DNA of 64,000 bases from Prevotella sp. (lineage in GTDB: Bacteria; Bacteroidota; Bacteroidia; Bacteroidales; Bacteroidaceae): contig JAEEXN010000005.1 of assembly GCA_016291595.1 (NCBI GenBank), forward strand, positions 1 through 64,000, written 5' to 3'. The notes under the pieces were generated by a model. That model saw nothing but the letters and a program-made list of their open reading frames with translations, made no database searches and had not been told where the DNA came from. The first letter of the stretch is position 1; every line of letters begins with the position of its first letter. The translations under genes and the position numbers were made by a program. Positions 4,765-63,935 of this stretch are shown here, one piece after another.

Positions 4765-4940
4765 TGACCTACTAATTATGTAGCAATTGATTGACTAATT
4801 AAAGTGGAATTAGGCATTAACTACACCTCAATCAGGCATGAATTACACTTTAGTTAGGCATCAATCAGTAGTATAATTAATCGGTTGATTAGCGAATGAT
4901 TGATGCCTAATTAGAGTTTAATATATATACTAATTGCAAA
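4765..4940. repeat. AT-rich degenerate tandem array, 22-bp period, with internal inverted symmetry
   Basis: attAGGCATtaa, atcAGGCATgaa, gttAGGCATcaa start at 4809, 4831, 4853 (exact 22-bp steps); perfect 14-bp inverted repeat TTAGGCATCAATCA (4854-4867) / TGATTGATGCCTAA (4897-4910). Confidence 0.75.
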
Positions 4941-23220: not shown

Positions 23221-23374
23221 GTAATTAATGCCTTATGATGTTGCAATAGATGGCTAATTATCATGCAATTGGTCATTAGTTATGTTCTAATCAATCATTA
23301 GTTAGAGCATAATTAATGACCAATTACAGTTTATTTAATAGACTAATTAGACTTGATTTTGTAAGTTATGTTGT
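23221..23374. repeat. AT-rich degenerate tandem array with 22-bp period and imperfect inverted repeat
   Basis: Units from 23221, 23243, 23265, 23287, 23309, 23331, 23353; TCATTAGTTA at 23273 and 23295; inverted arms AATTGGTCATTAGTTATGTTCTAA (23267-23290) and the complement of the segment ending at 23325 (22/24). Confidence 0.7.
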
Positions 23375-23412: not shown

Positions 23413-23650
23413 TACAATAAGGCATAAGTGTAGTATATGTTTACAGGCTTCATACCTATAATTCATTAAAATTCAACGGATTATACCGAATCTATGACGT
23501 GTGACGCTTGCTTTTAAAAAAATTCTTGTGCGTTGGCAATTCTGTTCAATTCAGATATTGAGAATCAACACGCTTATACCATAACATCCTCACAGTTTGT
23601 TGGTTAACATTCTACACACCACCATTCGTCTCCCTGAATGTTTCGCTTTC

Positions 23651-23734
23651 TGGAGGACATCATTAGTTTCATGGAAGGCAACATTGGCCTCATAGAGGGC
23701 ATCTCTTTCTTCCTAAAGGGCATCACTATTTGAT
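23651..23734. repeat. 21-bp tandem repeat, four degenerate units
   Basis: TGGAGGACATCA, TGGAAGGCAACA, TAGAGGGCATCT, TAAAGGGCATCA start at 23651, 23672, 23693, 23714. Confidence 0.75.
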
Positions 23735-45447: not shown

Positions 45448-46566
45448 ATGAGAGTAAAGTTCTTTATCATATCCGCATGCCTATTCGTATGCGGCAAGGC
45501 TACGGCGCAACAGGAGTTTACAGCACTGGAGCAGCAACAAATCAGTATTGAGACAAAGGATTTGTTCGAGCGGTCGAACATGTTCAGTGTCGACTTCGAC
45601 TGTCTGCCCGAGGAAGAGTACTCATTCCCTTTGCCAGTGGGTAAGGCCGTGTTGGTGAATAATGGAAATGATGTTGAGATTACAACCACCAAGGGAGATG
45701 CCGTAAAAGCCATGTTTGGTGGTGTGGTACGCATCTCGCGCAATCATCCCCAGTTTGGCCATGTTATCGTAGTCAGGCACGATAATGGCTTTGAAACCGT
45801 TTATGGACATAATGCCCAGAATCTGGTGAAGGTTGGTGAGAAAGTGCATGCCGGACAGACCATTGCCATTGTCGGCGGCAAGGACGACCGTATATTCTGC
45901 CTCTTTTCCATCATGGTGGACGGCCGTCGTGTCAATCCCGAAACACTTATCGATGTCCGTTCGCATAATCTTCGGGCTCAGCGTGTGATTGTCGAGAAGA
46001 AAGGATTCAATATCGACGTGCGTACTGAGCGCAAGAATTTGTCTGATGACGGTGATGTGAAGAATGCTGATGCTAATCCGTTCGAGAAAAGTGATGTCAT
46101 CAGACTTGATCTCTCAACACTTAAAGCCGGCGAATGGGCCTATCCGTTACCTGGATGTAAAGTCATCAGTCCCTATGGCGGACGCCGTCGTCACTCGGGT
46201 GTGGACCTGAAGACCAAACCCAACGATAATATCCGTGCCGCCTTTGCGGGTGTTGTCACGCGCAGCGGCCCCTTTAGTGGATACGGCAATTGCATCGTTA
46301 TCCGTCATCCTAACGGACTGACCACGCTCTATAGTCATCAGAGTAAGAATCTGGTGAAGGCCGGGCAAAAGGTAAAGGCCGGACAGATTATCGGTTTGAC
46401 GGGCCGCACAGGCCGTGCCACCACTGAACACCTGCATTTTGAGCTGCACAGTCCGAGCGGGCAGAAAGTCAATCCCGGCATTTTGTTTAATCACGAAACC
46501 AAGCGTCTGCAGAACGCTATTCTGACCATTCGGAAGGGAGGGGGCATTACGAGCCGTCGCAACTGA
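45448..46566 (+). CDS. M23-family metallopeptidase, two peptidase-like domains (first lacks the canonical HxxxD entry)
   Basis: C-terminal ISPYGGRRRHSGVDLKTKPNDNIRAAFAGVVTRSGPFSGYGNCIVIRHPNGLTTLYSHQSKNLVKAGQKVKAGQIIGLTGRTGRATTEHLHFEL. Confidence 0.93.
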   Translation: MRVKFFIISACLFVCGKATAQQEFTALEQQQISIETKDLFERSNMFSVDFDCLPEEEYSFPLPVGKAVLVNNGNDVEITTTKGDAVKAMFGGVVRISRNHPQFGHVIVVRHDNGFETVYGHNAQNLVKVGEKVHAGQTIAIVGGKDDRIFCLFSIMVDGRRVNPETLIDVRSHNLRAQRVIVEKKGFNIDVRTERKNLSDDGDVKNADANPFEKSDVIRLDLSTLKAGEWAYPLPGCKVISPYGGRRRHSGVDLKTKPNDNIRAAFAGVVTRSGPFSGYGNCIVIRHPNGLTTLYSHQSKNLVKAGQKVKAGQIIGLTGRTGRATTEHLHFELHSPSGQKVNPGILFNHETKRLQNAILTIRKGGGITSRRN

Positions 46567-46610: not shown

Positions 46611-46642
46611 CTTGCATATCAGAGAAAAAATTCGTATATTTG
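46611..46642 (+). promoter_or_regulatory. Bacteroidetes promoter-like sequence upstream of the 22-bp array
   Basis: CTTG (46611) N20 TATATTTG (46635-46642) matches the -33 TTTG / -7 TAnnTTTG architecture. Confidence 0.5.
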
Positions 46643-46680
46643 CATGTCGGAAGCATGGTGGATGTTTCCGACATGTTGTT
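46643..46680 (+). terminator. Hairpin directly after the promoter-like sequence (terminator or attenuator-like)
   Basis: CATGTCGGAA-gcatggtggatgt-TTCCGACATGttgttttaaaa, 10-bp perfect stem. Confidence 0.6.
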
Positions 46681-46704
46681 TTAAAATCCTTACACTTTAA
46701 ATCT

Positions 46705-46793
46705 ATCACTCCAGTGATAGCTTTCTCTCACTCCAGTGATAGGATCCTCTCACTACAGTGATAGCCTTCTCTCACTCCAGTGATAGTTTCTTA
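46705..46793. repeat. Palindromic 22-bp tandem array, block A (TCACTnnAGTGA x4), locus 1
   Basis: TCACT at 46706, 46728, 46750, 46772; units tcactccagtgatagctttctc / tcactccagtgataggatcctc / tcactacagtgatagccttctc / tcactccagtgatagtttctta. Confidence 0.95.
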
Positions 46794-46859
46794 TGGATGC
46801 CTGTTTGTACCCGAATTGATGGTGTTCTGTACCCTTTCCGATGATGAATTGTACCCTCA
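46794..46859. repeat. 22-bp tandem array, block B (nnGATGnnnnnnTGTACCC x3), locus 1, contiguous with block A
   Basis: tgGATGcctgttTGTACCCgaa / ttGATGgtgttcTGTACCCttt / ccGATGatgaatTGTACCCtca; GTACCC at 46807, 46829, 46851. Confidence 0.92.
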
Positions 46860-47001
46860 TTAGGCATTCTCGTTAGTGCCATTTGCGATGATAATATCAT
46901 AGAGCCTTTATGTATGCTGTTTGGAATGGCTGGTTATGCGATGGCAAGGCTTGCTGTTTCTGTTGGTGAAACTGATGAATGCCGGGATTGACAGGAAAGA
47001 A

Positions 47002-47279: not shown

Positions 47280-48464
47280 TTAATGATGGAACAGGCGAAC
47301 GCCCGTGAAAGCCATGGCAATGCCGTATTTGTCGCACGTCATGATGACATGGTCGTCGCGTACAGAGCCTCCTGCCTGTGCAATATACTCAACACCGCTC
47401 TTATGGGCGCGCTCGATGTTGTCGCCAAAGGGGAAGAAAGCGTCGCTGCCCAGAGACACACGGGTGTTCTTGGCAATCCATTCACGCTTCTCCTCGCGTG
47501 TGAGCACTTCGGGCTTCTCAGTGAAGAACAGTTGCCATGTGCCGTCGTTGAGCACGTCGTCGTGGTCGTCGGAGATGTAAACGTCGATGGTGTTGTCGCG
47601 GTCGGCACGGCGAATGCCGGGCTTGAATGGCAGTGACATCACCTTCGGATGCTGGCGCAGCCACCAAATATCAGCTTTGTTGCCGGCAAGACGGGTGCAG
47701 TGGATACGGCTCTGTTGGCCTGCTCCGATGCCGATGGCTTGTCCGTCCTTGACGTAGCAGACGCTGTTTGACTGGGTGTACTTCAGCGTTATCAGCGCAA
47801 TCATCAGGTCGCGGCGTGCCTCGTCGGTAAATGTCTTGTTCTGAGTGGGAATATTCTCGAAGAGTGCCGGATCGTCCAATCGGATTTCATTGCGGCCTTG
47901 CTCGAAGGTGACACCGAACACCTGTTTGCGTTCTACAGGCTCCGGCACGTAGTCAGGATCAATCTGAATCACGTTGTAAGTGCCTTTGCGCTTGTCTTTC
48001 AGAATCTCTATAGCCTCGGGAGTAAAGCCGGGAGCAATCACACCGTCGCTGACCTCACGTTTCAGCAGCAGGGCTGTGGTGGCGTCGCAGGTGTCGGAAA
48101 GAGCAACAAAATCACCGTAGCTTGACATGCGGTCGGCACCGCGGGCGCGGGCATAGGCACAAGCGATGGGCGAATCGTCGAGTCCCTGAATGTCGTCAAC
48201 GAAGTAGATCTTCTTCAATGTGTCGCTAAGTGGCAGTCCTACAGCGGCACCGGCAGGGCTTACATGCTTGAAAGAGGCTGCGGAAGGAAGTCCTGTGGCC
48301 TGCTTTAACTCCTTCACCAACTGCCATGCGTTGAGTGCATCGAGGAAATTGATGTAGCCGGGACGGCCGTTGATGACTTCAATGGGAAGCTCGCCCTCAG
48401 TCATAAAAATGCGCGAGGGTTTCTGATTCGGATTGCATCCGTACTTTAATGCTAATTCTTTCAT
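47280..48464 (-). CDS. Phosphoribosylaminoimidazolecarboxamide formyltransferase-type protein (PurH AICARFT domain only)
   Basis: ALKYGCNPNQKPSRIF; SAASFKHVSPAGAAVG; IGIGAGQQSRIHCTRLAGNKADIWWLRQHP; SDAFFPFGDNIERAHKSGVEYIAQAGGSVRDD; no MGS/IMPCH domain. Confidence 0.92.
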   Translation of the reverse strand: MKELALKYGCNPNQKPSRIFMTEGELPIEVINGRPGYINFLDALNAWQLVKELKQATGLPSAASFKHVSPAGAAVGLPLSDTLKKIYFVDDIQGLDDSPIACAYARARGADRMSSYGDFVALSDTCDATTALLLKREVSDGVIAPGFTPEAIEILKDKRKGTYNVIQIDPDYVPEPVERKQVFGVTFEQGRNEIRLDDPALFENIPTQNKTFTDEARRDLMIALITLKYTQSNSVCYVKDGQAIGIGAGQQSRIHCTRLAGNKADIWWLRQHPKVMSLPFKPGIRRADRDNTIDVYISDDHDDVLNDGTWQLFFTEKPEVLTREEKREWIAKNTRVSLGSDAFFPFGDNIERAHKSGVEYIAQAGGSVRDDHVIMTCDKYGIAMAFTGVRLFHH

Positions 48465-48558
48465 AAAAATGTAGATGGATTTTTTCTGCTGCAAAATTAC
48501 GAATTTATGCTGAGGTTTGCAAATATTTTGCTACTTTTGCAGTGCAATAGTAACTGTT

Positions 48559-63552: not shown

Positions 63553-63775
63553 TTGTTCGTTTGTATGATGAAAGATTCTCAGAATGAAAACTTACTGGTT
63601 TGTTGCTGATTACAGCCTGATTTTAGCGTGTTAGAATTTAATTGTCAGTCAGTAATTTCAGCTTTTGCATGGTTTAATTGAGACAATTATAGATCTTTAT
63701 CCTTTTCAGTCGTTATCTGCCTCTGAGTCAATATGCCTTTAGACCACGGCAGCCTCCTGCGTAATTATAACTTGA

Positions 63776-63842
63776 GGTACAATCAGCCATGTGTTGAGGT
63801 ACATTCGGTCATCGTTCAGGGTACCAACAGGCACATATTGGA
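63776..63842. repeat. 22-bp tandem array, block B (GTACC units, inverted relative to locus 1), locus 2
   Basis: GGTAC at 63776, 63798, 63820; the reverse complement reads GTGCCTGTTGGTACCC, cf. locus 1 GATGCCTGTTTGTACCC. Confidence 0.88.
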
Positions 63843-63847
63843 AGGCT

Positions 63848-63935
63848 ATCACTGTAGTGAAAGGATCCTCTCACTCCAGTGATAGCCTTCTCTCACTCCA
63901 GTGATAGGACTCTCTCACTGCAGTGATAGTTTCTA
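63848..63935. repeat. Palindromic 22-bp tandem array, block A (TCACTnnAGTGA x4), locus 2
   Basis: TCACT at 63849, 63871, 63893, 63915; 45/46 identity of 63862-63907 with 46741-46786. Confidence 0.95.

What the first reader, a model, noticed from the sequence alone, without database searches (positions are those of the whole stretch)
46705..46860. Composite array: seven contiguous 22-bp units in two sequence classes (4 palindromic TCACTnnAGTGA + 3 GATG-N6-TGTACCC)
The units run in strict 22-bp register. TCACT starts at 46706/46728/46750/46772 and GTACCC at 46807/46829/46851. The unit boundary stays in phase from block A into block B, so unrelated core sequences share one period. 22 bp is about two helical turns, so bound protein copies would sit on the same DNA face. 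Cores are constant palindromes while spacers vary (ctttctc, ggatcctc, ccttctc). It lies in a convergent, gene-free gap. Possible roles: cooperative protein-binding array, end-like binding sites of a transposase or recombinase supplied in trans (Tn7-type ends also use 22-bp TnsB sites, analogy only), a nucleoid or segregation site, or a MITE-like element built from short tandem repeats as described for Porphyromonas gingivalis.
Basis: seen in the sequence. Interest (0 to 1): 0.85.

Follow-up and report, generated by a model that had tools for sequence, protein, structure and literature searches.

The report
Docking arrays for HU–winged-helix DNA-binding proteins
The odd seven-unit repeat is one of 37 copies scattered through this Prevotella-type genome, and its palindromic half matches the four-unit docking sites found in front of the genes for a little-studied family of bacterial DNA-packaging-like proteins (HU fused to a winged helix), which suggests these proteins bind matching 22-bp arrays across the chromosome.

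Summary
In detail: four TCACTNNAGTGA palindromes plus three GATG-N6-TGTACC units at 22-bp steps. It is 1 of 37 dispersed intergenic copies in this 3.2-Mb genome. Nearly all share one layout: Bacteroidetes promoter, leader hairpin, block A, block B. A scan of ~85,000 species finds block A (same core, same step) mostly in Bacteroidales. There, several copies lie directly upstream of genes for HU-HIG proteins (PF18291) carrying a C-terminal winged helix. I tested this as a rule. HU-HIG genes have 21–23-bp tandem arrays upstream in 30/40 cases, against 37/202 control genes (p≈7e-12). In 13 further HU-wHTH genes found by protein similarity alone, the best lag was exactly 22 in 13/13. Helices with TAxR go with CAC-N4-GTG cores (25/28), helices without do not (0/10; p≈6e-7). 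In this genome the only HU-HIG gene with such an extension lies just downstream of an A+B array. Best reading: block A is the binding array of an autoregulated, sequence-specific HU–winged-helix protein, dispersed genome-wide. It works like an operator/nucleoid site and looks like BrickBuilt, but is not shown to be a transposon. No binding data exist; the pairing in this genome and the role of dispersed copies are inferred.

The parts
46612..46643 (+). Promoter-like sequence reading into the array: -33 TTG (46612-46614) and Bacteroidetes -7 box TATATTTGC (46635-46643)
   Evidence: Seen in sequence; a TTTGTATCTTTGC-like box is found in nearly all dispersed copies with a full leader, 62-130 bp before the first exact A core, mostly about 75. 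Transcription itself untested.
46642..46676 (+). Leader hairpin, 15-bp stem, 5-nt loop
   Evidence: Fold (-23.1 kcal/mol for the leader). Leaders of 31 copies fold more stably than dinucleotide shuffles (mean z -1.55, 21 below -1); sequence differs widely between copies.
46703..46786 (+). Block A: four tandem 22-bp units, core TCACTNNAGTGA (cores 46706-46717, 46728-46739, 46750-46761, 46772-46783); proposed binding array of an HU-wHTH protein
   Evidence: same core and period in other Bacteroidales and directly upstream of HU-wHTH genes.
46796..46856 (+). Block B: three 22-bp direct repeats GATG-N6-TGTACCC (GATG at 46796, 46818, 46840)
   Evidence: accompanies block A in the dispersed copies of this genome. 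Binding partner unknown.
63849..63926 (-). Second block A in the window (four units); the element reads on the - strand, block B to its left at about 63772-63836, promoter just beyond the window end
45448..46566 (+). Upstream neighbour: M23-type peptidase gene by sequence reading; flank only, not part of the element
   Evidence: homologues in 112 of 398 congeners at E<=1e-80.
47280..48494 (-). Convergent downstream gene, purH-like by sequence reading; flank only
   Evidence: ORF; name from sequence reading, not from a database search.

Best explanation
Block A is a specific DNA-binding array for a Bacteroidales HU-family protein with a C-terminal winged helix (HU-HIG, PF18291). The winged helices would read the palindromic cores (CAC-N4-GTG; here TCACTNNAGTGA). 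The 22-bp step (two helical turns) would stack four bound units on one face, and the HU part would bend or wrap the DNA into one compact complex. Each such protein gene carries its own array directly upstream, often between promoter and start codon, so binding would repress or tune its own transcription. In this genome the array, together with its promoter, leader hairpin and block B, is present at 37 intergenic sites, where it would act as dispersed anchoring or titration sites. SHOWN (by computation): dispersed copies, conserved core and period across genera, arrays upstream of HU-wHTH genes, core-helix correlation. INFERRED: binding, autoregulation, the HU-wHTH protein of contig C51 as the ligand in this genome, and the role of dispersed copies.
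For: Conserved beyond the species: the core-pair pattern hits 44 stretches, nearly all Bacteroidales; outside G000, 30 of 33 arrays counted have exactly four units. Most core bases carry 1.5-2 bits while the central NN does not. Arrays lie 69-127 bp upstream of HU-wHTH genes in several genera (Pfam HU-HIG E 8e-15 to 4e-33). Upstream regions of 40 HU-HIG genes: best lag 21-23 in 30/40 versus 37/202 controls, p=7e-12. Out-of-sample: 13/13 new HU-wHTH genes have best lag 22, 12/13 above all 200 shuffles. Recognition-helix motif versus core: 25/28 versus 0/10, p=6e-7, random background 1.5%. The predicted C-terminal domain has HHH-bb winged-helix topology at pLDDT about 80-91 and Foldseek returns eS25-type winged helices. 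In G000 the one HU-HIG gene with a winged-helix-like C-terminal extension (C51:307-924) lies about 185 bp downstream of an A array that is followed by B, and its helix reads STGRR.
Against: No binding or expression data. The G000 protein is a divergent HU-HIG member (E 8e-15), and a protein that looks similar in another array-bearing genome (L249) has no array upstream. In G000 the adjacency is one locus among 37. Prevotella UBA2850 has the arrays, but no HU-wHTH gene was found in its incomplete assembly. The closest SW299 homologue has a MITE, not an array, upstream. The core-helix motif was chosen after looking, and the proteins are related, so that p-value is optimistic. Block B is unexplained.
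Confidence: 0.8

Rival explanations
1. A BrickBuilt-like MITE: a non-autonomous mobile element carrying a minisatellite, spread by a transposase in trans. The arrays are passengers with no binding function.
For: Dispersed, intergenic, leader plus tandem repeats as in P. gingivalis BrickBuilt (PMC4596501); 37 copies.
Against: No terminal inverted repeats or sharp common ends in pairwise alignments; homology fades at differing points around promoter and B. Leaders have diverged widely while cores stay fixed. The same core and period occur in other genera upstream of HU-wHTH genes, without the G000 leader or B.
Confidence: 0.2
2. A family of small RNAs: the promoter drives an RNA with a 5' hairpin, four short hairpins (A) and repeated B motifs that sequesters a protein or pairs with targets.
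For: Consistent promoter-like box and structured leader in the dispersed copies; in G000 A can form short stems.
Against: The core alone would be a 4-bp stem with a UNNA loop, and stem extension is not conserved across species; the central NN is mostly CC/GG, not pairing. The array is found both upstream and downstream of promoter-like boxes of HU-wHTH genes. No Rfam match. Block A is inverted in some copies.
Confidence: 0.1
3. The arrays are read by another factor (a conventional regulator or a transposase), and neighbourhood with HU-wHTH genes reflects that factor regulating them.
For: Adjacency alone does not identify the ligand; array cores look like ordinary dimer operators.
Against: Core sequence changes from paralogue to paralogue in step with the adjacent protein's recognition helix, which a shared third factor would not predict.
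Confidence: 0.1

Closest known systems
BrickBuilt MITE of Porphyromonas gingivalis (PMC4596501)
   Same: Dispersed intergenic copies (19 there, 37 here), leader and tail around a 22/23-bp tandem repeat, promoter elements, species-restricted sequence. Its element 14 lies next to an HU-type (PF00216) gene (Table 1).
   Different: BrickBuilt has IS-like terminal repeats in several copies and up to 22.8 repeats. Here there are two repeat classes, mostly four A units, no terminal repeats found, and palindromic cores.
HU-HIG proteins (Pfam PF18291, 'HU domain fused to wHTH, Ig, or Glycine-rich motif'; NCBIfam TIGR01201 HU_rel)
   Same: The genes next to the arrays belong to PF18291.
   Different: No DNA target for them was found in the literature searched here. 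Burroughs et al. 2017 (from memory; not held) proposed roles in conflict with mobile elements.
IHF/HU nucleoid proteins
   Same: HU-fold DNA bending; IHF recognises specific sites (own knowledge).
   Different: IHF sites are single and not palindromic tandem arrays; here a second, winged-helix domain is proposed to give specificity.
REP/BIME elements with RAYT (Y1_Tnp)
   Same: Many short palindromic intergenic repeats linked to one protein family.
   Different: Only one weak Y1_Tnp match in the genome, with no array near it; array anatomy differs.

Membership tests
Operator array of an HU-HIG-wHTH protein | Tandem 22-bp array upstream of the family's genes | tested here: met
   30/40 vs 37/202 controls; 13/13 out-of-sample.
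Operator array of an HU-HIG-wHTH protein | Same core present in the window element and upstream of such genes | tested here: met
   TCACTNNAGTGA in the window and upstream of the L184, L186, L190, L191 and L197 genes, among others.
Operator array of an HU-HIG-wHTH protein | Cognate gene in the same genome | tested here: inconclusive
   One HU-HIG gene with a winged-helix-like C-terminal extension, beside an A+B array on C51; a single adjacency, divergent member.
Operator array of an HU-HIG-wHTH protein | Physical binding and autoregulation | not testable with these tools
   Needs EMSA, footprinting, ChIP-seq.
BrickBuilt / MITE | Terminal inverted repeats and common sharp ends | tested here: not met
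   Pairwise alignment of the 37 copies shows no common sharp ends.
BrickBuilt / MITE | Tandem 22-23-bp minisatellite with leader, dispersed and intergenic | tested here: met
BrickBuilt / MITE | Occupied versus empty sites in close relatives | not tested
   No close relative with a complete genome at hand; best M23 peptidase homologue among congeners searched is about 64% identical.
REP/BIME with RAYT | Y1 transposase gene flanked by the repeats | tested here: not met
Known Rfam RNA family | Match to a covariance model | tested here: not met
   only tRNAs reach a gathering score.
Tn7-type transposon ends | Pair of ends bounding a cargo with transposase nearby | tested here: not met
   37 single intergenic arrays with ordinary flanking genes.

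The most novel reading that the evidence does not exclude
Bacteroidales carry a set of parallel, mutually orthogonal sequence-specific 'chromatin' systems: each HU-winged-helix protein has its own four-unit 22-bp array code, regulates itself through it, and in some lineages has seeded tens of copies across the chromosome as nucleoid anchors; these complexes are also used by insertion sequences as fixed-distance landing sites (SW299: element inserted 23-24 bp from the outermost core in 7 of 16 arrays, five with 9-10-bp target duplications).
Probability: 0.35. Interest if true: 0.9.

Novelty: new variant of a known kind. Interest (0 to 1): 0.77.

Why it matters
HU-HIG proteins are expanded in Bacteroidales, and the literature searched here gave no known DNA target for them. 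A simple rule (read the four-unit array in front of the gene) would give each protein its binding site, make its regulon or chromosomal sites searchable, and could explain species-specific 22/23-bp minisatellites, including possibly BrickBuilt. It also offers orthogonal, modular DNA-binding parts for gut Bacteroides.

Tried and rejected
Transposon ends or Tn7-type sites: no paired ends, no transposase nearby. RAYT/REP: single weak Y1_Tnp hit without arrays. Known RNA: no Rfam match. Phage origin: core-pair pattern absent from 2.9 million viral contigs, though HU-wHTH homologues occur in a few unverified faecal 'phage' scaffolds. Promoter-proximal operators for the neighbouring genes in G000: strand of flanking genes shows no preference (8 ++, 8 --, 4 -+, 3 +-). 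Burroughs et al. 2017 could not be read. A first version of the helix motif gave a weaker association (p=7e-5) than the final one; both are exploratory.

Full report
OBSERVATION. The reported array is in the sequence as described: four TCACTNNAGTGA cores at 46706, 46728, 46750 and 46772, then three GATG-N6-TGTACCC units at 46796, 46818 and 46840. The 22-bp phase of A and B is only approximate across copies: the first TGTAC lies 22 bp from the last A core in about half of them and 23 bp in the others.

THE ELEMENT IS LARGER AND DISPERSED. A whole-genome search finds 111 core pairs (reversed control 0) in 37 arrays, several at contig ends, as expected of repeats that break assemblies. Where the leader is present, the layout is nearly always the same: a Bacteroidetes promoter box (TTTGTATCTTTGC-like), a leader hairpin of variable sequence, block A (3-6 units, usually 4), block B. 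Leaders are more stable than shuffles (mean z -1.55 over 31 copies). Block A occurs in either orientation relative to the promoter. Copies are intergenic with no preferred orientation to genes. Pairwise alignments give no sharp common ends. No Rfam family matches.

CONSERVATION. In 398 congeners only this genome has a three-core match; among 150 congeners one other (G075) has a core pair with different spacers. But a scan of about 85,000 species for two cores 22 bp apart returns 44 stretches, nearly all Bacteroidales: Phocaeicola vulgatus, P. sartorii, Bacteroides cutis, SW299, several Bacteroidaceae and Prevotella MAGs. Outside this genome 30 of 33 arrays counted have exactly four units. Information content is 1.5-2.0 bits at nearly every core base, and 0-0.5 bits at the central NN outside G000. 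Spacers are species-specific. Conserved half-sites around a free dinucleotide look like sites for a dimeric protein; the core alone would be a poor RNA hairpin.

THE PROTEIN. Five arrays lie beside a gene of the same kind: about 200-226 aa, PF18291 HU-HIG, with a C-terminal extension predicted as a winged helix (residues 137-196, helix-helix-helix-strand-strand, pLDDT about 80-91; Foldseek hits are eS25-type winged helices; the HU part of this four-sequence model is poorly resolved). Searching array-bearing genomes with one of these proteins showed that eight homologues have a four-unit TCACT-type array directly upstream, and that paralogues carry arrays with other cores: CCACNNNNGTGG, TTCCACANNTGTGGAA, TCACNNNNGTGA, GACCNNGGTC and others, one at 23 bp (L192).

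TESTS. (i) Upstream 320 bp of 40 HU-HIG genes: best self-match lag 21-23 in 30/40, controls 37/202, p=7e-12; strong arrays (>=44/66) 21/40 versus 7/202. (ii) Out of sample: 13 HU-wHTH genes found by protein similarity in the plasmid and phage collections: best lag exactly 22 in 13/13, 12 above all 200 shuffles. Caveat: several come from the same strains, and at least two (L252, L259) look like orthologues of genes already seen. (iii) Recognition helix with [TM][AG]xR versus an array with at least three CAC-N4/5-GTG units: 25/28 versus 0/10, p=6e-7; random background 1.5%. The motif was chosen after inspection and sequences share ancestry.

THIS GENOME. It has two HU-HIG genes plus ordinary HU genes; only one has a winged-helix-like C-terminal extension: C51:307-924 (P0005), about 185 bp downstream of block A of an A+B array at the contig start. 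Its putative recognition helix reads STGRR, fitting the CAC-N4-GTG rule. Having one of 37 arrays beside the only such gene is suggestive, not proof; the protein is divergent and a similar-looking protein elsewhere (L249) lacks an array. The second HU-HIG gene (C138) has its own, different 22-bp direct repeats upstream.

MECHANISM. Proposed: winged-helix dimers read the palindromes, two-turn spacing puts four units on one DNA face, HU domains bend the DNA, giving a compact complex. Upstream of the protein's own gene the array often lies between a promoter-like box and the start codon (L186, L189, L191, L199, L218), so roadblock autorepression is the simplest scheme. In many loci the divergent neighbour is a VapE-like/DUF3874 or BT4734-like protein, so the array could control both. 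The dispersed copies in this genome do not sit preferentially upstream of genes, which favours anchoring or titration over a regulon; this step is inference.

INDEPENDENT HINT. In SW299 7 of 16 arrays carry an insertion element (158-159-bp MITE, once the 1297-bp IS with a DDE transposase) exactly 23 or 24 bp outside the first core; five have 9-10-bp target duplications that differ between loci. No other copies were found in the fetched flanks of these 16 arrays. The same element also sits beside a HU-HIG array with another core (L202) and in front of the SW299 HU-wHTH gene that lacks an array (L188). Fixed-distance insertion suggests the arrays are occupied or recognised as a unit, but I looked only around arrays and HU genes.

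COMPARISON AND VERDICT. It resembles BrickBuilt (PMC4596501) in layout, and BrickBuilt_14 lies next to a PF00216 gene, so the same explanation may apply there; that was not tested. Membership in MITEs is not supported by the features tested. I file block A as a member of a newly recognised class, HU-wHTH operator arrays, at 0.8 confidence for the class; lower (about 0.6) for the C51 protein as ligand here, and about 0.4 for an architectural role of the dispersed copies.

Noticed in passing
L142, L146, L152, L161, L166, L177, L182 (SW299 arrays): A 158-159-bp MITE or its 1297-bp parent IS is inserted exactly 23-24 bp outside the array core in 7 of 16 arrays, with locus-specific 9-10-bp target duplications in five: possible targeting of the array.
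   Followed up: partly
window 4808-4865, 23273-23359, 23647-23703: Other 21-23-bp tandem arrays in the window; the first resembles block B (AGGCATNAATTACACC). They may be binding arrays of other HU-HIG proteins.
   Followed up: no
L233, L238, L224, L230 upstream regions: HU-HIG genes without a clear winged helix (some Gly-rich) also have 22-bp arrays upstream, mostly direct repeats rather than palindromes, reminiscent of block B.
   Followed up: partly
PMC4596501 Table 1, BrickBuilt_14: One P. gingivalis BrickBuilt element lies beside an HU-type gene (PGN_0872, PF00216), so its 23-nt repeats may be an HU-type array too.
   Followed up: no
L184, L186, L211, L218, L254, L260 and others: HU-wHTH genes are often divergent from VapE-like/DUF3874 or BT4734-like genes with the array between them, like a conserved two-gene module.
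   Followed up: partly
L206 (Bacteroides cutis): The divergent ORF next to this HU-HIG gene reads like the start of a Cas9 (MKKVLGLDLGSSSIGWAL); no Pfam match for the 98-aa fragment.
   Followed up: no
L163 (Anaerolineae MAG), L162 (Calothrix): Similar 22-bp palindromic arrays outside Bacteroidales; may be independent or mis-binned.
   Followed up: no
L171 (Anaerotruncus MAG contig): Array and IS identical in kind to SW299's; the contig is probably mis-binned.
   Followed up: no
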